Positions 1 to 33,227 of a stretch of DNA of 33,695 nt are shown one piece after another. Both the position numbers and the translations under genes were made by a program. Location of the stretch: positions 1 to 33,695 of the IMG/VR virus record IMGVR_UViG_3300035698_007183. One strand, given 5' to 3'. The notes under the pieces were generated by a model. That model was not told the DNA's origin and did not search any database. It worked only from the letters and a program-made list of their open reading frames with translations. Source of the stretch: a virus. Position 1 is the first letter of the stretch. Each line of letters starts with the position of its first letter.

Positions 1-273
1 ATATTTATTTTGCTTCAATGGGCAATAATGCTCATTTAAAATGGCGCAAGAAACGGGAAAGGCTGAGACGCTAACCCGAATGGAAGGCTATCTATAAAAA
101 GATATCCACATGCAACGCATAGGCGATGGAACTATTTATTATAAATAGACGATAATTCGCCCACGAGTGCGCCGTCCCTACTCTTTAATAAGAGGGGATA
201 AGAGATATGCTGAACTTAGTTGAAAAAAAACACTAAGAACATAGGGATAAAAAACCTTATGGTTAACACAATG
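1..273 (+). ncRNA. Group I intron, 3' part, interrupting the large terminase gene
   Basis: This is the 3' portion of a self-splicing intron; the 5' part lies outside the window. Visible core: an R-like segment around 113-123 contains GCATA, which pairs with TATGC in the S-like segment around 205-212, forming P7. Hairpins flank it: TGGGCA/TGCTCA near 18-33, a GGCTATCT/AGATATCC hairpin near 86-107, CTATTTA/TAAATAG near 131-147, CTCTT/AAGAG near 181-194 (P8-like), and CTTAGT/ACTAAG near 215-237 (P9-like). Downstream the terminase frame is open, but it is closed by TAG at 217-219 inside the intron. I place the 3' splice site after the G at 273 because the terminase-like sequence begins there and group I introns end in G. 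The exact site is inferred, since the internal guide sequence is not in the window. Confidence 0.82.
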
Positions 274-1569
274 AACCGCAGTAATATAAACGTGTTGGAA
301 GAAAGACGCTTAATTCCGAACAGTATTATAGAGGCTATCCTGCGTCCGTTTTTGGTTAGCAGACAGCCACCTTATATGAAAAACCCGAAATATTCTCAAA
401 TAGAAGAACTTCGAGAAGAGCCACAAGAAATTATTATTACCAGCGCACACTATAAATCAGCCGAATGGTATCCCGAAGCGAAGAAATTCTTAAGACAAAT
501 AGCAAACAATGACCCCGATACAAAGTGTATTTTCTTAGATTATTTAATTTCACTGCGCCACGGAATTAAAACACGCAAACAAATGATACGGGAAAAAGCT
601 AATCTTGATTTCATCACATTTTTGATGGAATATGGAAATATTGCTTACGGCTCATCAAGTAAATCTTTTTATAAACTTGGTTTGTTTTCCAGAAATGTCA
701 AACGTAGCTGGAGACCTATTACAGATGAAAATTTTATAACAACAGGGAAAAATCCTTATAATATACCAAAATTGCCAGAAGAAATAAGAATTGTTTCTGT
801 TGATGTAGCCATGAGAGCAGGTTCAACCAATGATAATACCATAATTGCTTGTGCTAGACTATTTCCTAGCAGAAAAGGTTGGTTAACAGAATATTCCTAC
901 ATGGAATCCCACAATGGGAAAAATACAATTTTACAAGCATTGAGAATAAAACAAATATTTACAGAATTTCAGGCAGATACACTAGTGCTCGACCTCCAAA
1001 ATGCAGGAATTTCCGTATTCGACGCTTTATCTTCTATTACTAAAGATGAACCTCGTGAAGAAGAATATCCCGCTTATACTGTTACAATATCCCCACATAT
1101 AGACGACAAGGTTTATGAGGATTTGACAAACAGAACTTTGGGACAAGATGCTCTTCCTTGTGTATTCCCTGTATCAGCTACGGCTCCCCTAAACTCGTTA
1201 ATAGCAGTTAAATTTAGAGAGAGATTAAAGAAAAAACTGATAAGTTTTTTAGTTGATGATACTACAGAAGAACAATTTTTGATAAAAGCACGAAACAAAG
1301 ATATATTAGACCAAGAAAATATTGAAAAAAGAGCATATCTATTGCAAGCTCATATACAAACAAGCCTATTTATAAATGAATCTATTTCTTTAGAACAAAT
1401 TATACAAAACGGTTTAATTAAACTAATAGAACCGTCTACCGGAAGAAAAGATAGATATACTGCTTGCAGTTATCTTAATTACTATATCTCTTTGTTAGAT
1501 GTAGAACTTTTAAAAGACAAGGAAATATTTGGAGATGAAGAATTTCTAAGAATGTTCCAGATTACATAA
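274..1569 (+). CDS. terL: Terminase large subunit, 3' exon (partial)
   Basis: This is the C-terminal part of the ATP-driven DNA packaging motor and headful nuclease; the N-terminal Walker A part is upstream of the window and of the intron. The exon opens with a Walker B-like strand ending in LEE, then the coupling-motif segment ITSAHYKS around 434-460. The RNase H-fold nuclease follows with three acidic positions: Asp at 802 (VSVDVA), Asp at 991 (VLDLQN) and Asp at 1450 (KDRYTA). The open frame extends back to a TTG at 220, but that codon lies inside the intron P9 hairpin, so it is probably not a real start. The portal gene follows after 12 nt. The family call is confident; the first exon residues depend on the inferred splice site. 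Confidence 0.88.
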   Translation, partial: NRSNINVLEERRLIPNSIIEAILRPFLVSRQPPYMKNPKYSQIEELREEPQEIIITSAHYKSAEWYPEAKKFLRQIANNDPDTKCIFLDYLISLRHGIKTRKQMIREKANLDFITFLMEYGNIAYGSSSKSFYKLGLFSRNVKRSWRPITDENFITTGKNPYNIPKLPEEIRIVSVDVAMRAGSTNDNTIIACARLFPSRKGWLTEYSYMESHNGKNTILQALRIKQIFTEFQADTLVLDLQNAGISVFDALSSITKDEPREEEYPAYTVTISPHIDDKVYEDLTNRTLGQDALPCVFPVSATAPLNSLIAVKFRERLKKKLISFLVDDTTEEQFLIKARNKDILDQENIEKRAYLLQAHIQTSLFINESISLEQIIQNGLIKLIEPSTGRKDRYTACSYLNYYISLLDVELLKDKEIFGDEEFLRMFQIT

Positions 1570-1581
1570 GGAGAATCACAT

Positions 1582-3252
1582 ATGGCAGTAAAAAACATGA
1601 AAGAAGAGAAGCAACCAGAAGAAGAGATAAATTTAACTGAAGCTGAAGTATGGGATGTAATTAAATTTTCTCGTAGTATGTCTGGTATGTCAGGGCAATA
1701 TTTAACCCCCGAAATGATAAACGCACGTCTTAAGGATATTTCTCTAAACCCGATGGAGGCAACTCAAGCCGACCTCGATAAGGCGATGAAGAATCCTAAA
1801 AATAGCGAAATAACTCTTCAGAAGTTTTCAGATTCGTTCGAAATACAGTCAATGATTTATAAAAGGCTAATTGCATATCTAGCTAACATGATTTCTTTCG
1901 ATATTACATATACATCTAACGCAAAAGCAGAAGAACTCAAAACTCCTAGATATAAAACTGACCTAAAAATACTGGAAGATTTTTTAGATAATTTTGACTA
2001 CAAAAAAGAACTTCGTGTTGTTGTACGAGAACTTTTAAGACACGATGCTTATTTTGGTTGTTTTGTAAAAACAAAAACCGGATACGTTTTGCAGGAACTT
2101 CCTTCCGAATATTGTAAGATAACAGGAAGATGGCAGGGAGGATTTCTTTTTAGTTTTAATATGTATTGGTTTATACAAACTGGTATAGATATTAACATGT
2201 ATCCATCATTCTTTAAAAGAAAATATAATCAGATATACAAAAAAACTGGTAAAAATAAAACGTATATGCCAGCCATTAATCCAAACTTGAGAGGGAAATC
2301 TAGCTGGGTAAATTGGGTAGATATTCCTACAACACTAGGCGTATGTTTTAAGCTATCTCCTGAGTTGGGAACAAGATTACCTTATTTCCTACCTTTGTTT
2401 AATGACTTGATATTACAAAGCTTAATGCGTAATCTTCAAAAAAATGTAAATATGGCTGCTGCTAGTAAAATGATTATGGGTGAAGTGCCCATGTTAAACA
2501 AAGAAGCTAAAGCCACAGTCAAAGACAGTATTGCCATCAGTCCTGATTTGCTCGGCAAATTTATGGCTTTAGTAAAAAATTCTGTTTCAGAAGCAATCAA
2601 GGTTGCTTCCGCACCATTGGAAAATATAAAAAGCTTTAGCTTTGATGCAGAAAACGAACTGTACGATAGCTATTTGAAAACAGCGTTAGCGTCCAGTGGT
2701 ATTAATACAAATTTAATATTTACTAGCAATCTAAAAGCAAATATTATGGAAACACAATTAAGTCTAAATGTTGATGAGCAAATGATGACTTCTTTGTACC
2801 CGCAATTTAATTCCTTTATGGAAAATTTTGCTAACAGAGAAACAAATAAATTTAAATTTAGCATAGCATTTGAGGGAACTAGTTTCTTTACAGACAGAGA
2901 AAAAAGATTAGATACTGCTATGTTGCTTCTTGATGCTGGTATTGCGATGCCACAAAAAATAGCTGCGGCTATTGGCATGAAACCATCGCAGCTTAGAAAA
3001 CACATGGAACAAGCAAAAGAAAACGGATTTATAAAAAAGCTTACACCACCTTCTGTCGAGTTTGACAAGCAGTTAGCTAAATTAAATCCAAATAAAGATA
3101 TTTCTAGTTCTACTCCTGTTAAGAAGAAGGAGAGAACTTCTATACTAAAGAAAAAGAGAGGTAGACCCCTAAAGGATGATTCGGAAATAAGTGACGAAGG
3201 TCAAGCTACCCGAGATGGAGGGTCTAATATTGGAAGAGGCGGCAAATCGTAA
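1582..3252 (+). CDS. Portal protein
   Basis: A 556-aa protein directly after the terminase, preceded by an AGGAG ribosome binding site. Portals form the dodecameric ring at one capsid vertex through which the terminase pumps DNA and to which the neck attaches. Support is position (terminase-portal-protease-capsid order), length within the usual 400-600 aa range, and a portal-like composition: an alpha-helical N-terminal third with an aromatic-rich region around residues 150-250, a long helical stem-like segment (residues ~270-330), and a Lys/Arg-rich disordered C-terminus containing KKKRGRPL around residue 520. No short motif is diagnostic for portals, so the call rests mainly on synteny and overall resemblance. 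Confidence 0.85.
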   Translation: MAVKNMKEEKQPEEEINLTEAEVWDVIKFSRSMSGMSGQYLTPEMINARLKDISLNPMEATQADLDKAMKNPKNSEITLQKFSDSFEIQSMIYKRLIAYLANMISFDITYTSNAKAEELKTPRYKTDLKILEDFLDNFDYKKELRVVVRELLRHDAYFGCFVKTKTGYVLQELPSEYCKITGRWQGGFLFSFNMYWFIQTGIDINMYPSFFKRKYNQIYKKTGKNKTYMPAINPNLRGKSSWVNWVDIPTTLGVCFKLSPELGTRLPYFLPLFNDLILQSLMRNLQKNVNMAAASKMIMGEVPMLNKEAKATVKDSIAISPDLLGKFMALVKNSVSEAIKVASAPLENIKSFSFDAENELYDSYLKTALASSGINTNLIFTSNLKANIMETQLSLNVDEQMMTSLYPQFNSFMENFANRETNKFKFSIAFEGTSFFTDREKRLDTAMLLLDAGIAMPQKIAAAIGMKPSQLRKHMEQAKENGFIKKLTPPSVEFDKQLAKLNPNKDISSSTPVKKKERTSILKKKRGRPLKDDSEISDEGQATRDGGSNIGRGGKS

Positions 3253-3260
3253 GGAGGAAT

Positions 3261-3743
3261 ATGATACTCTCACCTACTTTGAATGACATATTCAACGAAC
3301 AAGTCATGCACGAATACCGCAACCAGTCAATATACAGACAAATACAAGACGCATTCAAAGAGATGGGTCATAATAATATCGCAAAATATTTCCACGACCA
3401 AGCTTTACATGAAGAATCTCATGGGGATATGATATGTGAATATCTGGACAACAGAACAGGCGGAGAAGTTATTGTTATTAAAGTTGAACCCTTTGTTCTC
3501 GTCAGTAAAGATTTGTATTATATTGCAGACTTATATATTTCTACAGAAGAGGGAACAACACTTTCAATAGAAAGTATATACGAGTTTGCACTAAAAGAAA
3601 AGTCTTTTGTGGATTTTCCTTTTATTTTGAAACTTCTTAAAGAACAAATAGGGGAAGAATCTGAAGCAAATGATTTTGCTATAGGATTAAAAATTACAAA
3701 AAATTTAGACCTGTTTAATAAAAATTTTAATGAGGAAGAATAA
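3261..3743 (+). CDS. Ferritin-like di-iron protein
   Basis: A 160-aa protein that aligns by eye with bacterial non-haem ferritins (FtnA type). Helix A contains NEQVMHEYRNQSIY, with Glu18 in the position of the FtnA ferroxidase glutamate. Helix B contains AKYFHDQALHEESHGDM, with Glu51 and His54 forming the ExxH metal motif, followed by EYLDNRTGG, matching the family's YxxxRGG turn. Helix C carries Glu108 (IYEFALKE) and helix D carries LLKEQIGEE (Glu128, Gln129, Glu132). All expected ligand positions therefore appear present. The B-C loop looks about 20 residues longer than in FtnA, and the C-D connection about 12 residues shorter. It sits 8 nt after the portal gene behind GGAGG, inside the head operon. 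Iron oxidation or storage is known for the family; its role in this phage, host iron handling or a structural use of the fold, is unknown. Confidence 0.78.
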   Translation: MILSPTLNDIFNEQVMHEYRNQSIYRQIQDAFKEMGHNNIAKYFHDQALHEESHGDMICEYLDNRTGGEVIVIKVEPFVLVSKDLYYIADLYISTEEGTTLSIESIYEFALKEKSFVDFPFILKLLKEQIGEESEANDFAIGLKITKNLDLFNKNFNEEE

Positions 3744-3747
3744 TATT

Positions 3748-3945
3748 ATGTTAGTTAATCCTTGGATATTAAAAAACACATACAAATGTAAAAAGCCGAT
3801 TATGAAATATCTTGTATTTAAGTGTGGTTTGTCTTTTGCTGGTTATGAAAAAAATACATATTATTTTGTTAAAAATAGGGACTTAATACAACATTTAAAG
3901 AAAATGCCTATTGGTTTAAAACTACTAGATGCTTTTAAAAGATAA
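3748..3945 (+). CDS. Small hypothetical protein
   Basis: A 65-aa basic protein with no recognised family. An in-frame ATG at 3730 overlaps the ferritin-like gene by 14 nt, but the ATG at 3748 sits about 9 nt after GAGGAAG and just after the preceding stop, so I prefer 3748. It is rich in Lys, Tyr and Phe, with two Cys (KCKK and FKCG) and a C-terminal basic helix. Close packing behind the ferritin-like gene suggests co-translation. No function can be assigned. Confidence 0.6.
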   Translation: MLVNPWILKNTYKCKKPIMKYLVFKCGLSFAGYEKNTYYFVKNRDLIQHLKKMPIGLKLLDAFKR

Positions 3946-3987: not shown

Positions 3988-6045
3988 ATGGAAAAATTAA
4001 TATTCTCAATTGAAGATGGTCAAGTTGTTAAGGAAAATCCTGATTCAAACTTTGCAGTTTTATCTTTGGATTTTTTTGCATCCGGTGTAAATCGTAATGA
4101 CATGTATATTTCAGAGGAAACATTAATTCGAACTGCTGATACTATTAAAAACTGTCCCCTAGTCTGGAAATTTGATGAAAGATTGCATGATGCATACACG
4201 CACGATGCTGATGAAGTGCCGTGTGGCTTTATACCAGAAACCTCCAAAATAAAAGCTAAGAAACTAAAAGATGGCAGAACAATGTTATCAGTAGTGGCTT
4301 ATGTTTGGAAGAGGTATACCGGAGAACTTTTAAAAATCTTCAAGCGAGACGGCGGAAGAAAAGACGTGAGCGTAGAAATGTATGTTCTTGATGCAAAAGA
4401 AAAAGACGATGGAAATTTGGAACTCTTAGATTTCAAATATATAGGTGTTACAATACTAGGAAAGTTGATAAATCCAGCAATACCCTTGGCTGGAGCAACT
4501 GTTCTTTCTTTTGCAGATATGAAAAGTGACTACGAGAAAGACTGGGAAGAAGAATTTGCTACTAAAAAATGTGATAACTATGTTAATATGCAAATACCTC
4601 AATGTGTTAAAGAAAGCGCTCAAAAAGGTTTAAGTCTTTCGAGAAAATACAACAAGGGAGATACATCTGTGAACTTATCTGTTGCACGTTATTTGTTAAG
4701 AAATGACTACATATCAGAAGAAAAAATTACCCACATAACAAAATTCTTTTCTAATAACAGTGATAATTCAGATAGAGAGGATAAGCTTTCGCAGTTTTAC
4801 ATTGGTTGGCTGCTTTTCGGTGGTGATGCTGGTGAACAGTGGTCACAAACCGTTGCAGGAGAATTAAAGAAAGAAAAGGAACAAAAAATGTCTCTAAAAG
4901 ATACTCAAGTAACATTTCCTTATAAATCCAAGGAGGACATGAACCCCGCTTTAAAGGGAATAAAGCCTCCCATCAGCTTATCACAAGCCAATGCGATATC
5001 AAGACAGGCTGATGCTATTGGCACTGATAAAAATAAAAATGGTTGGGCTATTGCAATTAGCGCTTTCAAGAAAAGTCACACTGTTGAAGACGGAAAGTGG
5101 ATAAAAAAGGAAGGTAAGTCTATTGGCGGAGAAATTAACTCAAAATCAAAAGAAAATCAGAAACAGGGTATAGATGGGGAAAAACAAGAGACATACCTTG
5201 GAGAAGAAACTTTAGGAAAGGAGGAAGAAAGCATGGACAATAAGCAGAACAAGAAAGCGGTTGCACCTGAAGGAAAGAAAGATGAAATTGTAGTTGCAGA
5301 AGAAATACAGGAGGAAATCAAAGAGGAAGAAGTTGTAGAAGCTTTAGAAGAAAAAATTCCTGCTGAGAACGAAGTTGAAGAAGAGGCAGAAGAAAAAAAG
5401 CCAAAGGAAGACGAAAAAGAAAAGGAAGATGAACCAAAAGAAGATGAAGCTTCAGAAAAAGAGAAAGAAGAACCAGAAGAAAAAGTGGAAGCTTCTGATG
5501 AAACCAAAATGGCTTTAGCTGTTGGTAAAGTATTAAAAATATGCGCATTGAGTGCTCCTGCTTATCGTGAAATGGAAACCGGATACGGTAATAATATTCT
5601 AGAACTTTTTGAAAGTTTTGCTGTAGATGTTTCGGAAGGAGCTTTTGATTTTGCTACAAATATGAGCAAATTCCTTAAAGAGTTCATATTTGCTTCTAAT
5701 GAAAAGATTTTAGAATTACAAAAATCATGTGAAGAAGCTCAAGCAGAAGTTGTTAAACTCGAAGAATTTAAAACAGAAAGCGAAAAGGAAAAGCTAAGTC
5801 ACGAAATCAATACTGTTTTAAGTGAGGCGTATGAAGCCGGTATGTCAAAAGACGATATTAAAATTTTCAGACAAGAAGCAGATAGTTTCACTTTAGAAAC
5901 AATAGATGCTTTTAAAAATATGGTAAAAGCAAAAGCATTTGTATTTGTTAGTGGCAGCAAAAAAGCAGAAAGAGAAGACAATACTGTAAAGATAGGTCTT
6001 CCGTTTAACGAAGAAAAACCCAAAGCAGAATCTTTTTGGGACTAA
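3988..6045 (+). CDS. Prohead protease fused to scaffold (685 aa)
   Basis: The start follows an excellent AAGGAGG. Residues 1-180 resemble phage prohead maturation proteases: candidate catalytic His72 (or His67) in THDADEVPCG and Ser128 in DVSVEM, then the IGVTILGKLINPAIP segment typical of such domains. Residues ~200-300 form a helical module ending in a GWLLFGGDAG-like motif; residues ~301-380 resemble the ChaB-like GWAIAISAFKKSH module often fused to phage proteases. A highly charged Glu/Lys stretch follows (~415-510), then a helical C-terminal region (~510-685) that looks like a scaffold. The protease would cleave scaffold and capsid N-termini inside the procapsid. Two internal in-frame ATGs have plausible ribosome binding sites (4888 and, much better, 5233). 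The catalytic residues are inferred by eye. Confidence 0.78.
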   Translation: MEKLIFSIEDGQVVKENPDSNFAVLSLDFFASGVNRNDMYISEETLIRTADTIKNCPLVWKFDERLHDAYTHDADEVPCGFIPETSKIKAKKLKDGRTMLSVVAYVWKRYTGELLKIFKRDGGRKDVSVEMYVLDAKEKDDGNLELLDFKYIGVTILGKLINPAIPLAGATVLSFADMKSDYEKDWEEEFATKKCDNYVNMQIPQCVKESAQKGLSLSRKYNKGDTSVNLSVARYLLRNDYISEEKITHITKFFSNNSDNSDREDKLSQFYIGWLLFGGDAGEQWSQTVAGELKKEKEQKMSLKDTQVTFPYKSKEDMNPALKGIKPPISLSQANAISRQADAIGTDKNKNGWAIAISAFKKSHTVEDGKWIKKEGKSIGGEINSKSKENQKQGIDGEKQETYLGEETLGKEEESMDNKQNKKAVAPEGKKDEIVVAEEIQEEIKEEEVVEALEEKIPAENEVEEEAEEKKPKEDEKEKEDEPKEDEASEKEKEEPEEKVEASDETKMALAVGKVLKICALSAPAYREMETGYGNNILELFESFAVDVSEGAFDFATNMSKFLKEFIFASNEKILELQKSCEEAQAEVVKLEEFKTESEKEKLSHEINTVLSEAYEAGMSKDDIKIFRQEADSFTLETIDAFKNMVKAKAFVFVSGSKKAEREDNTVKIGLPFNEEKPKAESFWD
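5233..6045 (+). CDS. Scaffold protein from internal in-frame start
   Basis: Inside the protease ORF, an AAAGGAGG sequence ends 8 nt before an in-frame ATG at 5233 (codon 416), as good a start signal as any in the window. Initiation here would give a 270-aa protein of the Glu/Lys-rich linker plus helical C-terminus: small, acidic and coiled, as expected for a capsid scaffold. Nested protease/scaffold genes sharing a C-terminus are known in lambda (C/Nu3) and many other phages. The ribosome binding site is directly visible; separate expression is inferred. A weaker candidate start is at 4888, behind AAAAGGAA. Confidence 0.6.
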   Translation: MDNKQNKKAVAPEGKKDEIVVAEEIQEEIKEEEVVEALEEKIPAENEVEEEAEEKKPKEDEKEKEDEPKEDEASEKEKEEPEEKVEASDETKMALAVGKVLKICALSAPAYREMETGYGNNILELFESFAVDVSEGAFDFATNMSKFLKEFIFASNEKILELQKSCEEAQAEVVKLEEFKTESEKEKLSHEINTVLSEAYEAGMSKDDIKIFRQEADSFTLETIDAFKNMVKAKAFVFVSGSKKAEREDNTVKIGLPFNEEKPKAESFWD

Positions 6046-6061: not shown

Positions 6062-6601
6062 ATGGCATATGGAGTTTTAGTACAAGAAAAAGTTGCAGCT
6101 ATGAATGTCGATTCTCTTAATAGACCTTGCGTATCAGCGAGCCCTATTGAAAACGGAATGGTAATGAACCTGCTTTCAAAAGATACCACATCTGGAAGTG
6201 AAGTATGGACTGCTACTTATCCAATTACAGGAAGTTTAGTAAATTTGTGGATGGCTTATGAACCAGAAGTTGTCATAACAACTAGTGGAAACAGCTCGTA
6301 CCGGGGAATCGACCCAGACCCACGTAACTTTAGAACTGCGGCAGAAGATGTTTTCACCGCATTTAAATTACAGATTAGCGATTTATTAATGATAACTCCT
6401 GATGGTTTAAGTGGTTCAAGGTCAACGGGTGATTATGTAGTAGCGGCTAATGAAGATTATCAGTTAACTTGGGCGGGTACACCCGCAGCGGGGTTGACAC
6501 TGCACTATTTATACACAGGATATATCTCAATCGGAACAGGCGCAATTGACTCACAGCGCATTGTTGGCTACAAATTTGAAGTTACAAATATAGACGAATA
6601 A
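6062..6601 (+). CDS. Putative capsid decoration protein, copy 1
   Basis: A 179-aa protein, the first of two tandem paralogues placed between scaffold and major capsid gene, the position of gpD in lambda-like order. It is beta-rich, with Gly/Ser/Thr-rich segments, a DPDPRNF motif around residue 86, and a C-terminal GYISIGTGAIDSQRIVGY segment. It shares its first 14 residues and most of its C-terminal 30 residues with copy 2, often with identical codons. I recognise no family motif; decoration or head-fibre function is inferred from position and small beta-rich character. Confidence 0.55.
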   Translation: MAYGVLVQEKVAAMNVDSLNRPCVSASPIENGMVMNLLSKDTTSGSEVWTATYPITGSLVNLWMAYEPEVVITTSGNSSYRGIDPDPRNFRTAAEDVFTAFKLQISDLLMITPDGLSGSRSTGDYVVAANEDYQLTWAGTPAAGLTLHYLYTGYISIGTGAIDSQRIVGYKFEVTNIDE

Positions 6602-6647
6602 TTCTAGGAAAAAAGACTAAAAAATTAAAGGAAAGGAGATAGATAAA

Positions 6648-7196
6648 ATGGCATATGGAGTTTTAGTACAAGAAAAAGTTGCAGCTATGAACATTGACTC
6701 TCTCAATAGACCTTGCGTTAGCGCAACAGCTATAGAGAATGGAATGGTTATGAATCTGCTTACAAAAGACACCACATCGGGCAGTGAAGTTTGGACTGCA
6801 ACAAATCCCGTAACTGGGAGCTTAATAAATTTGTGGATGGCTTATGAGCCAGAGGTTGTCGTAACAACTAGTGGCAACAGCTCATACAAGGGAATTGACC
6901 CTGACCCACGTAACTTCCGCTCAGAAATCGGAGATTTGTTCACAGCCTTCAAGCTTCAGCTTGGAGATTTAGTTATGATAACACCCGACGGACTAAGTGG
7001 TTCTCGCTCAACCGGAGACTATGTGGTAGCAACAAATGCTGATTTCCAGTTAAACTGGTCAGCGGCTCCCATAGCAGGAACAACATTGAAGTATACCTAC
7101 ACAGGATATATCTCAATCGGAACAGGCGCAATTGATTCGCAGCGCATTGTTGGTTACAAATTTGAAGTTACAAACATAGACGAACAATCATCTTAA
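6648..7196 (+). CDS. Putative capsid decoration protein, copy 2
   Basis: A 182-aa tandem paralogue of the 6062-6601 gene, starting behind GGAAAGGAGA. The N- and C-termini are almost identical to copy 1, while residues ~90-100 and ~128-150 diverge, consistent with a duplication followed by drift or with selection for two surface variants. It lies immediately upstream of the major capsid gene. The same functional reasoning as for copy 1 applies: a capsid-surface or stabilising protein is likely but unproven. Confidence 0.55.
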   Translation: MAYGVLVQEKVAAMNIDSLNRPCVSATAIENGMVMNLLTKDTTSGSEVWTATNPVTGSLINLWMAYEPEVVVTTSGNSSYKGIDPDPRNFRSEIGDLFTAFKLQLGDLVMITPDGLSGSRSTGDYVVATNADFQLNWSAAPIAGTTLKYTYTGYISIGTGAIDSQRIVGYKFEVTNIDEQSS

Positions 7197-7215: not shown

Positions 7216-8343
7216 ATGAAAATCTCTAATAAAATTTTAAGTTTTGCTGGCGGAGAAGCCAATGTTGCTCCTTATAGAGCGTTCATTGATTACTGGAATC
7301 ACTTCCGCTCAATGACAGACAAAGGTAACTCTCAGAAATACGATTTCCAGCGCAGCCGTAGTGACGGAACAACAATCACATTTGACGAGAAAGAAGTTCA
7401 AATGAACAAGTCTCTTCGTCAAGAGATACTCAGACACGCTAATGTTGATAATTTTGATGCATTTCCGTTAGAACAGTGGATTACCAATCCTATGATTTCT
7501 TGGGCAACATTTGCCGTTGTAAATCAGCTTGTTGATATGGTACTTCCCGATACGATTATTGACAGCATTGGTTTGTACACAGAAGTACGCCAGATAGATT
7601 GGGGCGACAGTGCTGCTTTCGAAATCAAACCTCGTGACATCTTCGTTGTTTCAAAAGCAGGAAGAGGCATGAGAACTGCCGAAGTTCACAAACAATTCAA
7701 CGGACAGGTAACAGTTGTTCCTGTTATGCGTGAACTAACCGTGCAAGTTTCGCTATATAAAGTTCTTGCAGGAAAAGAATCTCTTGGTGACTTTGTTGCT
7801 AAAGTTATTCGCTCGCTTGAAACAGACATGGCAAAAGACGCTTATACAACATTTAACACTGCTATGACAGCGCTTTCTGCTACTGGCGACGACAAACTGT
7901 TATATGCTGGTTACAGCCAGTCAGACCTAATTACATTAGCGCAAAAAGTTTCTGCGTGGAATGGTGGAAACAAAGCTGTAATTGTTGGCACACCAGTTGC
8001 TCTTTTAAGTGTGTTACCAGCAGATGCTAACTACAGATATACTCTAGAAAGTGACTATGTAAAAATGGGTTACATTAACACAATGGCAACCTACGACGTT
8101 CTTTCTATTCCTCAGTTGGCTGATTTCTCGGTTCCATTCAAAATGATGCTTGATGACACAAGACTATATGTGTTATCTCCTTCAGCAGGAAAAATCGTAA
8201 AAATGGTTATCGAAGGCTCAACAATGTCCAACATTGACTCATCCTTCGCAAATGCTAACTTGAACCAAAATGCTACATTGTACAAGGCATGGGCAAGTGG
8301 TGTGGCTACCTCGTCGATTGCGGGAATATTAACCCTTCCCTAA
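7216..8343 (+). CDS. Major capsid protein (unspliced reading; exon 1 ends at 8318)
   Basis: A 375-aa protein behind AAAGGAGG, following protease/scaffold and decoration genes. This position, the length, and an HK97-fold-like make-up support major capsid protein: N-terminal charged helical arm, a GLYTEVRQIDWGDSAAFEIKP-type beta segment around residues 115-135, and a long alpha-beta region with MAKDAYTTFNTAMTAL near 210. The contiguous frame ends at 8343, but the last 25 nt (8319-8343) lie inside a group I intron. Splicing would join 8318 to 8633 and end at 8657, also giving 375 aa. The two products differ only near the end: IAGILTLP unspliced versus IAGVMTLP spliced. The gene thus tolerates the intron whether or not it splices. 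Confidence 0.88.
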   Translation: MKISNKILSFAGGEANVAPYRAFIDYWNHFRSMTDKGNSQKYDFQRSRSDGTTITFDEKEVQMNKSLRQEILRHANVDNFDAFPLEQWITNPMISWATFAVVNQLVDMVLPDTIIDSIGLYTEVRQIDWGDSAAFEIKPRDIFVVSKAGRGMRTAEVHKQFNGQVTVVPVMRELTVQVSLYKVLAGKESLGDFVAKVIRSLETDMAKDAYTTFNTAMTALSATGDDKLLYAGYSQSDLITLAQKVSAWNGGNKAVIVGTPVALLSVLPADANYRYTLESDYVKMGYINTMATYDVLSIPQLADFSVPFKMMLDDTRLYVLSPSAGKIVKMVIEGSTMSNIDSSFANANLNQNATLYKAWASGVATSSIAGILTLP

Positions 8344-8754: not shown

Positions 8755-9621
8755 ATGTCACACAGAATTACAGAAATAGAAGCTACAGAAAGACTATATA
8801 AAAACAATAAAAATACAATTAATATGAAAAACTATTACGCATCTAGACAAAAAGCCGATTTTACATGTAGTGTATGTGGTTATAAATGGAAGACCATGGC
8901 TTATAACGTAATAAACGGCAAAACAGGCTGTTATAATTGCGCCCACAAAAGAATAGGAGAAAAACAATCTACTACATTCCAAAATGCAGCTGAAAAGCTT
9001 TATAAAAAGCATAAAGATAATATTATATTATTAAAATATGGTGGAACTTCCCATAAAAAATCAGAATTTGAATGTACAAGATGTGGAAATATTTTTATTT
9101 CAGATGTACATAGTGTATTGTCTCAAAAATATGCTTGCAGAAAATGCTGGATAAAACAAATGGGAAAACTTAAATCTGGAGCCAATAGCAATCTTTGGAA
9201 AGGTGGAATAACCAAACTTAGACCGTATATAAAAACATCTTTAACTGAATGGAAAAACCTTTCTATGGAAAATTGTAATTATAAGTGTGTTGCATGTTCA
9301 AACACCAATACTTTTGATGATATACATCATTTATATTCCCTAAATAACGTTATTGAAGATACATTAAATGAGCTTGGTTATGATGAAAAAGAAAGGATGA
9401 TAGATTACAAAATAGAAAATATAGAAAAAATTGTTAATAAAATTAAAGAAATTCATTCTAGACATCCTCTTGGGGTATGCCTTTGTAAAAAATGCCATAA
9501 AAGATTTCACAAAACATATGGCAAATTAGATAATACGCCTGAACAATTCTATGAATTTTTAAGAAAAAGAAACATTCAAATAGATAATAAAATTATAATT
9601 CGGGAACAAACATGCGCTTAG
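8755..9621 (+). CDS. Free-standing HNH homing endonuclease with two zinc ribbons
   Basis: A 288-aa DNA endonuclease. Two N-terminal treble-cys modules (C38/C41/C59/C62 and C107/C110/C128/C131) resemble DNA-binding zinc ribbons of homing endonucleases. The linker has the SNLWKGG motif common in phage HNH proteins. The nuclease has CVAC (C178, C181), HH at 191-192 and CLCKKCHKRFH (C244, C247, H248, H252). It lies 98 nt after capsid exon 2 and outside the intron. There is no strong ribosome binding site (only AAAGAAAG), the gene is AT-rich, and it ends in TAG, unlike most neighbours, which suggests separate acquisition. Its likely target is the capsid gene or an intronless allele; this is inferred. 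Confidence 0.88.
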   Translation: MSHRITEIEATERLYKNNKNTINMKNYYASRQKADFTCSVCGYKWKTMAYNVINGKTGCYNCAHKRIGEKQSTTFQNAAEKLYKKHKDNIILLKYGGTSHKKSEFECTRCGNIFISDVHSVLSQKYACRKCWIKQMGKLKSGANSNLWKGGITKLRPYIKTSLTEWKNLSMENCNYKCVACSNTNTFDDIHHLYSLNNVIEDTLNELGYDEKERMIDYKIENIEKIVNKIKEIHSRHPLGVCLCKKCHKRFHKTYGKLDNTPEQFYEFLRKRNIQIDNKIIIREQTCA

Positions 9622-18108: not shown

Positions 18109-18822
18109 ATGATAAGCGGAATTTACTGTATAGAAAATATAATTAATAATAAAAAGTATATAGGTCAAGGAATAAATGTAAAAAGAAGGATGAAGACTAA
18201 TCACAAGGAAATTATTGTACTAAACAACGCAGTAGATAAATACGGAGAAATAAATTTTAAACGATATATAATAGAATATTGCGATACAAATAAATTAAAT
18301 TGTTTAGAACAGTATTATATAAAGAGATTTCATTCTCACGTTTCAGATAACGGATATAATATTTCTTGGGGTGGTGGCACTCCTATGAAAGGGAGAAAAC
18401 ACTCAGAAGAAACAAAAAAGAAAATAGGAATAAAAGGAAAAGGAAGAAAGCATTCGGAAGAATCAAAAAGAAAAATGAGAGAAAATCATCCAGATTGTAA
18501 TGGAAAAAACAATAATTTTTACGGAATGTCTCATAACAATGGGTGGAAGAAAGAAAAAAGAAAAGACATGCTAGGAAAAAACAATCCTTCTTTTGGAAAA
18601 AAAAGGAATAACTCTTCTTCCAATTATTTAGGAGTATACTTCCATAAAAGAGATTTTTGCTGGCAAGTATCTGTTAGCAAAAATGGTAAACTTATATATG
18701 TAGGCTCTTTTCCAAAAGAATCAGAGGCAGCAATAGCCTATGATGATTTTATACTAAAAAACAAACTAAAAAATCCGTTAAATTTCCCGAAAGAAATATC
18801 AAAGGAGATTTGCAATGCCTAG
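18109..18822 (+). CDS. GIY-YIG homing endonuclease with NUMOD3 and AP2 modules (1)
   Basis: A 237-aa endonuclease starting 11 nt after the RusA-like gene behind AAGGAAA. GIY at 4-6 and YIG at 17-19, Arg26/27 and catalytic Glu67 (CLEQYY) define the nuclease. Residues ~92-165 carry NUMOD3-type DNA-binding repeats (GRKHSEETKKK, GKNNPSFGK). Residues ~171-226 form an AP2-like DNA-binding domain (NYLGVYF..WQVSV..GKLIYVGSF..EAAIAYD). It ends in TAG and its end overlaps the recombinase start by 8 nt. It would make a double-strand break that drives its own spread. Confidence 0.9.
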   Translation: MISGIYCIENIINNKKYIGQGINVKRRMKTNHKEIIVLNNAVDKYGEINFKRYIIEYCDTNKLNCLEQYYIKRFHSHVSDNGYNISWGGGTPMKGRKHSEETKKKIGIKGKGRKHSEESKRKMRENHPDCNGKNNNFYGMSHNNGWKKEKRKDMLGKNNPSFGKKRNNSSSNYLGVYFHKRDFCWQVSVSKNGKLIYVGSFPKESEAAIAYDDFILKNKLKNPLNFPKEISKEICNA

Positions 18823-19816
18823 AAAAACAGCAAGAAAAATAATTACATCAAAGAAACTAACAAAGAAAATTAATCCCGACAATAAGAAATTAGTAGAAAA
18901 TTTTCTGAGAGATAAATCTATTAGAACTAGCGATACAACAATTGTCGTATATGAAAGTAATTTAAATATTTTCTTCGTGTGGAATTTACAAAATAATGAA
19001 AATAAAAAATTTACAGATATTAGAAAAATAGAATTCTCAAACTTTTTTTCATATGCTTCATCTGAACTTGGATTGGGCTCTTCTAGATTAAATAATTTGC
19101 GAAGTACCTTATCTTCTTTATCAAATTTCTTAGAAAAGTTTTACGATGAAGAATATCCCGATTTTAGAAATGTGATTTTAAAAGTTATTGAATCTGCACC
19201 AAAAGAGATGCGTAGAAAAAAAGCTATACTTAGCGATGAGCAAGTGGATAAACTTTTATCTCATTTAGAGAAAACCAATACACAGAGGGCGTGTTGGTTA
19301 GCCCTAGCAATTACAAGTGGAGCCAGATTTACAGAACTTTTAAATTTTGAATGTGATTTAATAGACGAAAATAGAATGGCTTTTGGAGATATATTCCTAG
19401 AAACAACACGAGAAATAAAAACAAAGGGCAGGGGAAAATCAGGTAAAATGATATATAAGTATATTTTACGTGATAAATTTTTACCTTATTATAGAAGTTG
19501 GGTGAAAGAACGGGAAAAAATTTTAAAGAAAAAAGGTTTAGAACACAACAATCTTTTTATAAAAGTAGACGGCAACCCTGCTACACCTGCGACAATTTAT
19601 GGTTGGGTTGCAAGTTTTGAAAAATATTTAGGAGTACCATTTTATACTCATGCGTTGAGGCACTATCTTACAACCCTTCTTTCCAAAAAAAATATACCCC
19701 CTACAATAATTAAAGAGATATTCGGGTGGGGTGATTTGACTATGGTGGGAATTTATAACGATGAAACAGCCGCCAGTATGACCTGCCCCGAACTTGAAAA
19801 TTTGAAAGGATTATAA
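18815..19816 (+). CDS. Tyrosine recombinase (integrase/XerC-like)
   Basis: A 333-aa site-specific recombinase behind AAAGGAG. Residues ~25-125 form an N-terminal SAM-like DNA-binding domain; the catalytic domain begins near 138. Active-site set: Arg171 (SGARFTELL), Lys in the following beta-turn (203-211), His279 and Arg282 (HALRH), Trp305 (GWGD), Tyr314 (GIYND). All catalytic positions are present, so it is probably active. It overlaps an endonuclease gene upstream by 8 nt and shares its stop A with the next start. No attachment site or repressor is visible here, so it may serve in dimer resolution, integration, or movement of the island. Confidence 0.88.
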   Translation: MPRKTARKIITSKKLTKKINPDNKKLVENFLRDKSIRTSDTTIVVYESNLNIFFVWNLQNNENKKFTDIRKIEFSNFFSYASSELGLGSSRLNNLRSTLSSLSNFLEKFYDEEYPDFRNVILKVIESAPKEMRRKKAILSDEQVDKLLSHLEKTNTQRACWLALAITSGARFTELLNFECDLIDENRMAFGDIFLETTREIKTKGRGKSGKMIYKYILRDKFLPYYRSWVKEREKILKKKGLEHNNLFIKVDGNPATPATIYGWVASFEKYLGVPFYTHALRHYLTTLLSKKNIPPTIIKEIFGWGDLTMVGIYNDETAASMTCPELENLKGL

Positions 19817-20643
19817 TGGATAATTTTTCAAAAGAATCCGGAATATATTGTTTTGAGAATATTGTTAACAATAAAAAATATATAGGGCAAGCAATAGATT
19901 TAAATCAAAGAGTAAAACAACATTTAAGAGATTTAAAATCGGAGAGAGACTTCTCCATTTTATTACAAAGAGCATGGAAAAAATACGGGAAAGAAAACTT
20001 TAATATATTTATTATTAAATTTTGCAAAATAGAACTTTTAAATAAAAAAGAAATATATTATATAAAAAAATTTAAATCTTTAAGCCGTGAAAATGGTTAT
20101 AATATTTCTCCGGGTGGAGGGGTAATGAAAGGAAGCAATCATCCAAATTTTGGAAAACATCCTTCAGAAGAAACTCGAAAAAAAATGTCTAACTCTCAAA
20201 AAGGAAGAAAACATAGTGAAGAAACAAAGAAAAAACTCTCAAGTGTTTTATTTGGACATTCTGTATCCAAAAAAACAAGAGATAAAATAAGCAATAAACT
20301 AAAGGGCGTAAAGAGAAATCCTCTTTCGGAAAAACATAAAGCAAAAATATCTAAAAGCAATACTGGAAAAATAATACCGAAAAAATCTATAGAAAAAATG
20401 AGATATTCTCAATTATGTGGTAAAAAAACTAAAAAGAATAGAACCAGCAACTATAAAGGAGTTTCTTTTGAAAAAGGTTTAAGAAAAAAACCTTGGAAAG
20501 CTCAAATTCAAATAAAAGGAAAAAACAAAAACATAGGAAGATTTTCTACAGAAATAGACGCAGCTATTGCTTTTGATAAATATGTATGGGATTTATTTCA
20601 TGATACACTGAAATTAAATTTCCCTTCTACTGACAATATATAA
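19816..20643 (+). CDS. GIY-YIG homing endonuclease with NUMOD3 and AP2 modules (2)
   Basis: A 275-aa endonuclease whose ATG overlaps the recombinase stop (TAATG), so it is probably translated by re-initiation. GIY at ~9-11 and YIG at ~22-24, catalytic Glu79 (NKKEIYY). Several NUMOD3 repeats follow (residues ~105-210, units like GRKHSEETKKKLS and GVKRNPLSEKHKAK), then an AP2-like domain (residues ~216-270, NYKGVSFEKG..WKAQI..GRFSTEIDAAIAFD). It shares its layout with the 18109 protein but has more repeats, so the two are probably diverged relatives flanking the recombinase. Confidence 0.9.
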   Translation: MDNFSKESGIYCFENIVNNKKYIGQAIDLNQRVKQHLRDLKSERDFSILLQRAWKKYGKENFNIFIIKFCKIELLNKKEIYYIKKFKSLSRENGYNISPGGGVMKGSNHPNFGKHPSEETRKKMSNSQKGRKHSEETKKKLSSVLFGHSVSKKTRDKISNKLKGVKRNPLSEKHKAKISKSNTGKIIPKKSIEKMRYSQLCGKKTKKNRTSNYKGVSFEKGLRKKPWKAQIQIKGKNKNIGRFSTEIDAAIAFDKYVWDLFHDTLKLNFPSTDNI

Positions 20644-25225: not shown

Positions 25226-25292
25226 GGGATGGATAGATAAGCATAATTAACTTATTGACAAGAGGTATACTTTCGAATACCTCTTCCATCCC
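25226..25292 (+). other. Predicted three-way-junction RNA upstream of endonuclease gene
   Basis: An outer helix GGGATGG/CCATCCC (25226-25232 with 25286-25292) encloses a small hairpin ATAAG/CTTAT (25237-25241 with 25251-25255) and a perfect 9-bp hairpin AAGAGGTAT/ATACCTCTT (25260-25268 with 25277-25285). It ends 37 nt before the GIY-YIG start. It could be a 5' leader that limits endonuclease translation, an mRNA processing site, or a mobile-element remnant. I matched no known riboswitch or ribozyme motif. Confidence 0.45.
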
Positions 25293-25329
25293 GTTTACAA
25301 TCGAATGTTTATCACGAAAGGATAAAGAT

Positions 25330-26163
25330 ATGAATACTGGAATTTATAAAATAGAAAATCTAACTAATAACAAATGTTATGTTGGACAAACAATCAATTT
25401 AAGAAACAGAAGGTCTGTGCATTTTGCAAACCTTAACAACAATAAACACCACAGCTTGCATTTGCAAAACTCGTACAATAAATATGGGAACAATAATTTT
25501 AAATTTTCTATTCTAATATATTGTGAAGATTTCGAATTAACAAGATACGAACAATTTTTTAATGATTATTATACAAATTTCGGGCTTTCTTATAATCTTA
25601 GAAAATGTGTAGATAGTCCTAAAGGAACCAAGTGGTCTGAAAAAAGTAAGAAGAAAGTTTCTGGAAAAAATCATCACGGGTATGGAAAAACCGGAGAAGA
25701 TTCTCCTAGTTTTGGCAGAAAACATACCAAAAAAGAGCTTGAGAAAATGGCAAAGTCACAAAAAGGAAAGATTATTTCGGAAGAAACTAAGAAAAAATTA
25801 TCTTTAATAAATACTGGGAAAAAATTATCTGAAGAGACTAAAGAAAAAATATCTAAATCTCTTAAAGGTCGCTTTACTGGAGAAAATCACCCGTTTTACG
25901 GCAAACATCATTCGGAAGAAACTAAAGTAAAAATATCTAAGTCTGAGCTAGGAAAACACCCTTCTAAAGAAACTTTAAAAAAAATGTCTACAGCACAATG
26001 CGGAGAAAATAATCCAAATAGTAAATTAAAATTTAGCGATGTTTTAGAAATAAGAGAAATGATTAAAAAGAAAGAAAAAATTTTAGATATAGCAAAACAG
26101 TTTAATGTATGTATAGGAACAATCTATTTAATTAAAAACAATAAAATATGGAATAATTCTTAG
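25330..26163 (+). CDS. GIY-YIG homing endonuclease with NUMOD3 repeats and C-terminal HTH (3)
   Basis: A 277-aa endonuclease. The start at 25330 is chosen behind AAAGGATAAAG; the longer frame from 25255 would begin within the structured leader. GIY at 4-6, YVG at 17-19 (a YIG variant), catalytic Glu74 (RYEQFF). Residues ~95-225 hold at least five NUMOD3-like repeats (GRKHTKKELEKM, GKIISEETKKKLS, GKKLSEETKEKIS, GKHHSEETKVKIS, GKHPSKETLKKMS). Residues ~230-277 look like a helix-turn-helix (KFSDVLEIREMI..ILDIAKQFNV..IYLIKNNKIW) instead of the AP2 domain of the other two. Its TAG stop overlaps the ribosome binding site of the Dit gene. Confidence 0.9.
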   Translation: MNTGIYKIENLTNNKCYVGQTINLRNRRSVHFANLNNNKHHSLHLQNSYNKYGNNNFKFSILIYCEDFELTRYEQFFNDYYTNFGLSYNLRKCVDSPKGTKWSEKSKKKVSGKNHHGYGKTGEDSPSFGRKHTKKELEKMAKSQKGKIISEETKKKLSLINTGKKLSEETKEKISKSLKGRFTGENHPFYGKHHSEETKVKISKSELGKHPSKETLKKMSTAQCGENNPNSKLKFSDVLEIREMIKKKEKILDIAKQFNVCIGTIYLIKNNKIWNNS

Positions 26164-31394: not shown

Positions 31395-33227
31395 ATGGCA
31401 ACACCCAACCTAGGATTAAGTTCTACTTCTTCGGCAGCAGGAAGTGCAGTAACATTTCTAACTTGGCGCTTATTGCAAGACGGAGATAGCAACTCAAACG
31501 CAATAACAATAGATACATGGGCTGGAGAAGTTAGTGCTTCAATGGTAACTGTGGAATCTGGAATCATATATATATGTGATGCAACAGATTCGGGAGCACC
31601 AAACTATATCGCAACTGTTTCTGGTATTACTTCCTATGATACCGGAATGATTATAGCCTTAAGCGTTGACCTTACTACGACTGGAACAGCAACCCTAAAT
31701 ATAAACACATTAGGAACAAAATCTTTGTATAAAACTGCTTCAAACGGAGTATCTGGAAACTTAGATTCAGGGGACTTGGTAACAGCAAGATACCACTTCT
31801 TCGTATATACAGGAACATATTGGTTATGGATGGATAGCACAAGTTCAGACCAAATCGGAATATCTGGAAATCAAAACGAAATAGTAATATTATCTGGAAG
31901 TGGGAGTGGAGTTGAAAGTAGTGGCGTTTTAATAAGCGATATACCTTCTTCTAGTGGAAGCTATATTGTTCTTGAACTAAACTCAACTATGAATAACGAG
32001 TGGCTTCTTTCTGACGGCGATTCGACAACCGTAATAAGTGACGTATCAGCATCAACCGTTCAAGTAGATGTTCTTGCTGGCGGAGCTATCGACTCTAGCG
32101 GGTCAGAAATATCTCTTATAACAGGAGGAGTTCTTTCAAGCACTGGCTCAGAAGTATCATTACAGCGTGGTGGAGTTTTAACAACCAGCGGTTCAGAATT
32201 ATCTGTAGAGACCGGGGGAGTTCTTTCAAATAGTGGTTCAGAAGTATCATTACAGCGGGGTGGCGCTCTTACAACCAGCGGTTCAGAACTATCCGTTGAA
32301 GTTGGTGGGGTTCTTTCATCCAGCGGTTCAGAACTATCTGTTTTATCTGGCGGAGTTCTTTCGTCCAGCGGGTCAGAGCTATCTTTACAAAGAGGTGGAG
32401 CTCTTACAAGCAGCGGTTCAGAACTATCCATTGAAGTTGGTGGGGTTCTTTCATCCAGCGGCTCAGAACTATCTGTTTTATCTGGTGGAGTTCTTTCATC
32501 AAGTGGTTCGGAATTAAGTCTTCAAAGAGGAGGAGCTTTATCAACCAGTGGTTCGGAACTATCTATTTCTGTCGGTGGAGTTCTCTCTTCAAGTGGTTCG
32601 GAGCTATCATTACAACGTGGTGGCGCTCTGACAACAAGTGGTTCAGAGCTATCTATTACCGAGTTCGAACGTCTAACTTTAGAAGCAGCCACCGAATTAA
32701 CAGTCACCTCTGATGCGATAACAGTTACACAATCATCTCATAAATTACAACCACAAACAGGTACGGCAGATGACTTAGAAACCATCAGCGGTATGCAAAC
32801 AGGAGATATTCTCGTGCTTTATGCGTCGGACGCAGGAACAGACACTATTACCATAAAACACGGACTTGATAACATTAGTTGTATGGGAGATAACGACATC
32901 GAATTATCTGAAGGAATGGTAATATGCTATTATGATGGCTCAACAGTATACGTTTCTGGCGGTGGTGGAGGCGGAGGACATGTTATATATGATGCCGACT
33001 CTGCATTTACTCAAAGGAGTAATCTCGCACTCTTGGGTTCAGGATTTACTCTAGAGGATAATGCTGCTGGCGATGCAACTTGGGCTAAGGTCGATTGGAA
33101 TATGACTTCTACGGAAATTACATCTGGATGTACAGTAACAATTCCGTCGGGAGTTGGCTCTGTTGTTGTTGGAGCTCTAAACGTAGTTGGAACTCTTGTA
33201 ATTAATGGAACAATGGTTGTTTTATAA
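31395..33227 (+). CDS. Tail fibre with 13 tandem 15-residue repeats
   Basis: A 610-aa protein behind AAAAGGAGG. Residues 1-228 are a beta-rich N-terminus with segments such as TARYHFFVYTGTYWLWMDS, probably a virion-docking module. Residues 229-423 are thirteen repeats of GGVLSSSGSELSLQR-type units (15 aa each). Residues ~424-540 match a common fibre module (DDLETISGMQTGDILVLYASDAG, IELSEGMVICYYDGSTVYV). A GGGGGGG linker near 525-531 leads to a C-terminal beta domain (VTIPSGVGSVVVGALNVVG), a likely tip. This is a good candidate for a receptor-binding or host-range fibre whose length can change by repeat slippage. Confidence 0.75.
   Translation: MATPNLGLSSTSSAAGSAVTFLTWRLLQDGDSNSNAITIDTWAGEVSASMVTVESGIIYICDATDSGAPNYIATVSGITSYDTGMIIALSVDLTTTGTATLNINTLGTKSLYKTASNGVSGNLDSGDLVTARYHFFVYTGTYWLWMDSTSSDQIGISGNQNEIVILSGSGSGVESSGVLISDIPSSSGSYIVLELNSTMNNEWLLSDGDSTTVISDVSASTVQVDVLAGGAIDSSGSEISLITGGVLSSTGSEVSLQRGGVLTTSGSELSVETGGVLSNSGSEVSLQRGGALTTSGSELSVEVGGVLSSSGSELSVLSGGVLSSSGSELSLQRGGALTSSGSELSIEVGGVLSSSGSELSVLSGGVLSSSGSELSLQRGGALSTSGSELSISVGGVLSSSGSELSLQRGGALTTSGSELSITEFERLTLEAATELTVTSDAITVTQSSHKLQPQTGTADDLETISGMQTGDILVLYASDAGTDTITIKHGLDNISCMGDNDIELSEGMVICYYDGSTVYVSGGGGGGGHVIYDADSAFTQRSNLALLGSGFTLEDNAAGDATWAKVDWNMTSTEITSGCTVTIPSGVGSVVVGALNVVGTLVINGTMVVL
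32079..32663 (+). repeat. 45-bp coding tandem repeat (13 units)
   Basis: Thirteen contiguous 45-bp units, starting GGCGGAGC and ending at 32663, encode the 15-residue fibre repeat. Units 5-7 and 8-10 form a second-order 135-bp repeat, and units 11-13 form a shortened version, showing past unequal exchange. Because 45 is a multiple of 3, copy-number change keeps the frame. Confidence 0.93.

What the first reader, a model, noticed from the sequence alone, without database searches (positions are those of the whole stretch)
3261..3743. Ferritin-like gene inside the head operon
All ferroxidase-type ligand positions (E18, E51, H54, E108, E128/Q129, E132) appear conserved, which implies selection for metal binding. 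Its place between portal and protease, with 8-nt spacing, suggests co-expression with head genes. Options: iron sequestration in the infected host, protection from oxidative damage, or a virion component. The lengthened B-C loop and shortened C-D link are unusual for ferritins.
Basis: partly seen in the sequence, partly recalled or inferred. Interest (0 to 1): 0.75.

Follow-up and report, generated by a model that had tools for sequence, protein, structure and literature searches.

The report
Phage ferritin fixed in head operon
This virus carries a genuine iron-oxidising ferritin gene locked between its capsid-building genes; dozens of related phages keep it in exactly that place, and some cultured gut phages carry a version there that has lost the iron site, so iron chemistry or a ferritin-shaped part may be tied to building virus heads.

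Summary
The ORF at 3261-3743 is real and is a ferritin: Pfam Ferritin E 1.7e-9, AlphaFold pLDDT 95, TM 0.92 to Thermotoga ferritin. Across 35 phage homologues (down to 20% identity) only nine columns never vary. Seven are the ferroxidase centre: E18, Y25, E51, H54, E96, Q129, E132. The gene is not a stray. In 39 of 49 portal-seeded viral contigs that continue past the portal it sits between portal and protease. These 41 ferritins form one clade apart from the cellular ones sampled. A second family occupies the same slot in other phages, including cultured Enterocloster and Thomasclavelia phages. It keeps the ferritin fold (Z 22) but has lost all ferroxidase ligands. Some relatives lack any ferritin-like gene there, so it is dispensable. 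Best reading: a late-expressed working ferritin tied to the head-building stage. Whether it acts in the cytosol or is built into proheads is open; the iron-dead versions favour a head-associated role. No paper found describes this head-operon ferritin lineage.

The parts
3261..3743 (+). ferritin subunit gene, 160 aa, H-type / bacterial non-heme ferroxidase centre E18, Y25, E51, H54, E96, Q129, E132
   Evidence: Pfam PF00210 E 1.7e-9; AF2 pLDDT 95.1; TM 0.92 to T. maritima ferritin; ligands invariant in 35 homologues; purifying selection, dN/dS about 0.06-0.19 in most pairs
3253..3260 (+). 8-nt gap between portal stop and ferritin start, ggaggaat, a Shine-Dalgarno sequence
   Evidence: read directly
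1582..3252 (+). portal protein gene (556 aa), upstream neighbour
   Evidence: PHROG 2739 portal E 5.4e-51
220..1569 (+). probable large terminase, first gene of the head module
   Evidence: position and profile match to relatives' terminase-position genes including PMBT24's annotated terminase
3748..3945 (+). small conserved ORF after ferritin (65 aa from 3748; ORF finder start 3730), same slot in nearly all relatives; the equivalent in phage TR-TP1 is labelled DUF5659
   Evidence: no Pfam or PHROG hit for the window copy
3988..6045 (+). prohead protease/scaffold-like gene (685 aa, acid-rich middle), downstream neighbour
   Evidence: PHROG 3313 (unknown function) E 9e-23; same position in relatives; the protease assignment is from position and is inferred
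6062..7196 (+). two tandem paralogous small head proteins (179 and 182 aa), decoration-like by position
7216..8343 (+). probable major capsid protein (375 aa)
   Evidence: PHROG 4088 E 1.8e-41, unknown function; matches the annotated MCP position of PMBT24

Best explanation
The gene encodes a true ferritin subunit of a phage-only lineage kept in the head gene cluster. It is translated with the portal and protease late in infection. It most likely assembles into a ferritin cage that oxidises Fe2+ at an ordinary in-subunit di-iron site, lowering free iron and consuming oxygen or peroxide in the infected cell while heads are built and filled. Shown here: ferritin fold, invariant ferroxidase centre, purifying selection, fixed slot next to the portal, single phage clade. 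Inferred: late expression (from the operon), cage assembly, iron oxidation, and benefit during the head-building stage. Not settled: whether the cage stays in the cytosol or joins the prohead.
For: Pfam Ferritin above cut-off. AF2 model pLDDT 95.1, Foldseek TM 0.92/0.90 to TmFtn, Z about 22 over residues 1-159 to many 24-mer ferritins. In 35 homologues down to 20% identity the only invariant columns are L7, E18, Y25, F44, E51, H54, E96, Q129, E132, i.e. the complete ferroxidase set plus two. Slot conserved in 39 of 49 portal-seeded contigs (my count), typically within tens of bases of the portal and 0-9 nt from the small ORF. Phage clade separate from cellular ferritins, SH-aLRT 98.6. Purifying selection.
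Against: No expression, proteomic or biochemical data. Some relatives with the same head genes lack it (L015, L016, L029, L033, L094, L095), so it is not essential. Ferritin-fold proteins without the ferroxidase centre fill the same slot in other phages, which a pure iron-enzyme role does not explain. Helix E is short, so 24-mer assembly is not certain.
Confidence: 0.5

Rival explanations
1. Head-associated protein: the ferritin-fold protein is built into the prohead or virion (as core, portal-associated or encapsulated protein). In most environmental phages it also works as a ferroxidase, so that the head acts somewhat like an encapsulin iron compartment; in the iron-dead family only the structural role is left.
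For: Position between portal and protease in deeply diverged phages, where T4 has prohead core genes 67/68 (background knowledge). Iron-dead ferritin-fold proteins in exactly the same slot, with helix E kept and full-length profile homology (P 4.9e-6 against a best of 0.012 in 200 shuffled controls; a profile of these alone ranks ferritins first among 4982 targets). BFVD entries labelled Prohead protease have weak ferritin-fold matches. A Phyre2-predicted ferritin was found in virion mass spectrometry of phage Sajous1 (PMC10892097), though not beside the portal.
Against: No virion proteomics for this family. Absent from several close relatives, so not needed for head assembly. A 12-nm ferritin cage inside the head would take DNA space. 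The Sajous1 case is another gene context with low spectral counts.
Confidence: 0.37
2. Passenger metabolic gene: a host-derived ferritin that happens to lie in the late operon and is swapped, lost and regained with homing-endonuclease traffic, with no link to heads.
For: At least 4 switches between the two ferritin subclades and 5 presence/absence changes on the portal tree. Endonuclease genes flank ferritin in L077 and fill the slot in L108. Phage-borne Dps is known as an oxidative-stress gene (PMC8008677, PMC6669764).
Against: All head-slot ferritins form one clade apart from cellular ones, which repeated capture from hosts would not give. Replacement is in situ and mostly like for like. Purifying selection like the portal's.
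Confidence: 0.1
3. The iron-dead members co-assemble with host ferritin subunits and poison or redirect host iron storage (an L-chain-like or dominant-negative role), while the catalytic members add capacity.
For: Fold retained, ligands lost; L-chain ferritins are a precedent for subunits without a ferroxidase centre (background knowledge).
Confidence: 0.03

Closest known systems
Bacterial/archaeal non-heme ferritin (Ftn, PF00210; T. maritima 1Z4A, A. fulgidus 1S3Q, E. coli FtnA 1EUM)
   Same: Same fold over the whole chain, same in-subunit ferroxidase ligands, 20-24% identity
   Different: Separate phage clade, head-operon location, slightly short D-E turn and helix E
Ferritin-annotated genes of Enterocloster phage PMBT24 (WDQ45549.1) and Thomasclavelia phage TR-TP1 (XPO98013.1)
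   Same: Same gene slot after the portal, same fold, same order of head genes
   Different: They lack every ferroxidase ligand; the PMBT24 paper lists ferritin under other functions without comment (PMC11035940)
Phage-borne Dps and Mn-catalase of gut phages (Gratiaviridae, PMC8008677) and of Lactobacillus plantarum phages (PMC6669764)
   Same: Ferritin-superfamily iron proteins carried by phages
   Different: Dps family rather than Ftn; the L. plantarum copy lies near replication and repair genes, not in the head operon; read as stress genes
Encapsulated ferritin-like proteins in encapsulins (EncFtn, PMC5012862)
   Same: Ferritin-superfamily protein linked to a capsid-like shell
   Different: EncFtn is a two-helix protein that builds its iron site between subunits and sits in an encapsulin shell in cells; here a full four-helix ferritin in a phage genome and no shown packaging
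Sajous1 gp217 (Vi01-like phage, PMC10892097)
   Same: Ferritin-like prediction, detected in virion mass spectrometry
   Different: Next to a tail completion gene rather than the portal; homology to this family not tested

Membership tests
Non-heme ferritin (Ftn) | Sequence match to the Ferritin family above the curated cut-off | tested here: met
   38.2 bits vs 24.5; relatives up to 92 bits
Non-heme ferritin (Ftn) | Four-helix bundle with long B-C crossover and C-terminal helix E | tested here: met
   AF2 model, five helices, pLDDT 95.1; Z about 22 over residues 1-159
Non-heme ferritin (Ftn) | In-subunit ferroxidase ligands (human H: E27, Y34, E62, H65, E107, Q141) | tested here: met
   E18, Y25, E51, H54, E96, Q129 plus E132 invariant in 35 sequences
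Non-heme ferritin (Ftn) | 24-subunit cage | not testable with these tools
   no complex prediction or biochemistry available
Non-heme ferritin (Ftn) | Fe2+ oxidation and storage | not testable with these tools
   needs purified protein
Bacterioferritin (Bfr) | Heme-ligand Met at position 52 and ExxH in helix D | tested here: not met
   residue 52 is E; helix D has EQIGE with Q129 and E132
Dps | Inter-subunit ligands, short helix in the B-C loop, no helix E | tested here: not met
   in-subunit ligand set complete; no helix between 65 and 84; helix E present
Rubrerythrin | Duplicated ExxH di-iron motif, usually a rubredoxin domain | tested here: not met
   weaker Pfam hit than Ferritin (30.3 vs 38.2 bits); no ExxH in helix D; no rubredoxin part in 160 aa
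Encapsulated ferritin (EncFtn) | Two-helix protomer, site between subunits | tested here: not met
   four-helix protomer with a complete in-subunit site
Virion protein | Present in purified particles | not testable with these tools
   no proteomic data held for this family; PMC11035940 has no mass spectrometry

The most novel reading that the evidence does not exclude
A ferritin-fold protein is a prohead or virion component of a widespread group of tailed phages. In most it carries out iron oxidation inside or at the head, a viral counterpart of encapsulin iron compartments; in gut phages it persists as a purely structural, iron-dead ferritin.
Probability: 0.33. Interest if true: 0.85.

Novelty: new variant of a known kind. 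Interest (0 to 1): 0.6.

Why it matters
Phage ferritins and Dps proteins are usually read as borrowed stress genes. Here a ferritin lineage is maintained beside the portal gene across deeply diverged phages, with an intact iron site in most and an iron-dead version in cultured gut phages. That gives a direct and cheap test, virion proteomics and iron assays on isolated Enterocloster and Thomasclavelia phages, of whether a ferritin can be a head protein. It also offers a natural series from active enzyme to possible structural part.

Tried and rejected
The search for related loci with P0001 alone in viral contigs found nothing, so the family had to be reached through the portal and then a ferritin alignment. 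Portal and ferritin scans of genome contigs gave no prophage and one weak cellular locus, so the host of the window phage stays unknown. Phage-collection hits to P0001 (SA 1306 Kay, MT838998) and to clade 2 (MT836766, MT838721) show no match to this head module's profiles and look like cellular ferritins on unverified records. Chance similarity of the iron-dead family to ferritins was tested with 200 shuffles, a reversed profile and about 4900 decoy ORFs and rejected. DNA from the fetch of an annotated region was not handed to structure prediction because that tool admits only loci from its listed sources.

Full report
Observation. The window is a whole IMG/VR virus record of 33,695 bases. The ORF at 3261-3743 (+) encodes 160 aa with an ATG start. 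The portal gene stops at 3252 and the 8-nt gap is ggaggaat. Pfam gives Ferritin at 38.2 bits against a cut-off of 24.5. The best solved relative by sequence is Thermotoga maritima ferritin, E 2e-6, with a nearly gapless alignment. Downstream come a small ORF (65 aa from 3748), a protease/scaffold-like gene, two tandem decoration-like genes and the probable MCP.

Structure. AF2 with 35 phage homologues gives pLDDT 95.1 and pTM 0.88, helices 5-34, 38-64, 85-112, 116-145 and 149-154. Foldseek places it on T. maritima ferritin at TM 0.92/0.90. VIA-align gives Z about 22 at 1.2-1.7 A over residues 1-159 against many 24-mer ferritins. The B-C crossover (about 20 residues) and C-D turn are therefore ordinary; only the end is a few residues short.

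Ligands. In 35 sequences as low as 20% identical to the window, nine columns are invariant: L7, E18, Y25, F44, E51, H54, E96, Q129, E132. By standard ferritin numbering (background knowledge: human H chain E27, Y34, E62, H65, E107, Q141) this is the full ferroxidase centre. dN/dS between close pairs is mostly 0.06-0.19, like the portal.

Slot. Portal-seeded scans and one ferritin-seeded scan gave about 70 contigs. Profiles for seven head genes show one order: terminase, portal, ferritin, small ORF, protease, decoration, MCP. Counting only portal-seeded contigs whose DNA continues past the portal, 39 of 49 have the ferritin (my count; near-identical contigs are included, so this is not 49 independent cases). 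Six go straight from portal to the small ORF: L015, L016, L029, L033, L094, L095. L108 has a GIY-YIG endonuclease there and L120/L122 an unrelated 163-aa ORF. The gap from portal to ferritin is mostly -4 to 77 nt; larger gaps are insertions, some of them endonuclease-like genes.

Lineage. 41 head-slot ferritins form one clade (SH-aLRT 98.6) against cellular ferritins from Chloroflexota, E. coli, S. aureus and T. maritima; L069, in another context, falls outside. The cellular sample is limited (the E. coli sequence and the T. maritima fragment were typed in as yardsticks), so the nearest cellular source is not identified. On the portal tree the two ferritin subclades switch at least 4 times and presence/absence changes at least 5 times, so alleles are replaced in place. 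L020 and L022 have ferritins that differ essentially only in the C-terminal tail.

Iron-dead family. L010 has a 165-aa ORF in the same slot without the ligands. Related proteins occupy the same slot in L132, L134, L135 and L136; L133 begins at this gene, so its portal is not seen, but the protease and MCP follow in the same order. The same holds for the cultured Enterocloster phages PMBT24 and CB473P1 and Thomasclavelia phage TR-TP1, where two depositors wrote 'ferritin'; further Enterocloster phages and TR-TP2 have it at matching positions. Profile-profile comparison with the catalytic family is collinear over 157 columns with P 4.9e-6; 200 shuffled controls reached 0.012 at best. A profile of these proteins alone ranks ferritins, phage and cellular, directly after its own members among 4982 targets. 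The L010 protein alone reaches Pfam Ferritin at E 0.0012, below the curated score. Its AF2 model has pLDDT 93.1 and aligns to ferritins at Z 22 over the whole chain including helix E. Whether it descends from the catalytic phage clade or from another ferritin is not resolved, as it hits cellular ferritins equally well.

Mechanism. Shown: fold, site, selection, slot, single clade, iron-dead counterpart in the same slot. Inferred: late co-expression with head genes, cage formation, Fe2+ oxidation. I commit to a working ferritin made at the head-building stage (0.5), against a head or virion component (0.37) and a passenger stress gene (0.1). The iron-dead family is the strongest argument for the head-associated reading; loss in some relatives and the lack of proteomics are the main arguments against.

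Known work. Gut phages with Dps or Mn-catalase are read as oxidative-stress aids (PMC8008677); L. plantarum phages carry Dps near replication genes (PMC6669764). PMBT24's ferritin is listed without discussion (PMC11035940). A Phyre2-predicted ferritin was detected in virion mass spectrometry of phage Sajous1, not next to the portal (PMC10892097). Text searches found no paper on a head-operon ferritin family, within an open-access library only.

Noticed in passing
window 18109-18822, 19816-20643, 25255-26163, 8755-9621: Three GIY-YIG/NUMOD3 endonuclease genes and one probable endonuclease (weak DUF4379/DUF723 hits) interrupt the structural module.
   Followed up: partly
window 18815-19816: A tyrosine recombinase (Phage_integrase E 4e-18) sits inside the tail module between two GIY-YIG genes.
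   Followed up: no
window 31395-33227: A 610-aa protein with many near-identical GGVLSSSGSELS-type repeats and no Pfam match.
   Followed up: no
window 6062-6601 and 6648-7196: Tandem paralogous head proteins; relatives have one or two copies.
   Followed up: no
L077 2013-2765 and 3300-4052: The ferritin gene is flanked on both sides by probable endonuclease genes (the downstream one GIY-YIG/NUMOD3), a possible route for in-place allele exchange.
   Followed up: partly
L020 3891-4376 vs L022 9761-10252: Ferritins differ essentially only in the C-terminal tail (EWWQCVIWDATGG vs GEDWYRVKVWSDSIGG), one of two tail types that recur across clade 2.
   Followed up: no
BFVD A0A6J7WIS1, A0A6J7WPK9, A0A6J7XDU5: Viral proteins labelled Prohead protease give weak ferritin-fold matches, and several long Dps-labelled phage proteins do too: possible ferritin/protease fusions.
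   Followed up: no
L122 8615-9106: The ferritin slot holds an unrelated 163-aa protein in a 166-kb phage contig.
   Followed up: no
L045, L166, L167: Unverified 'phage' records carry ferritins with no match to this head module's profiles, probably host contamination.
   Followed up: partly
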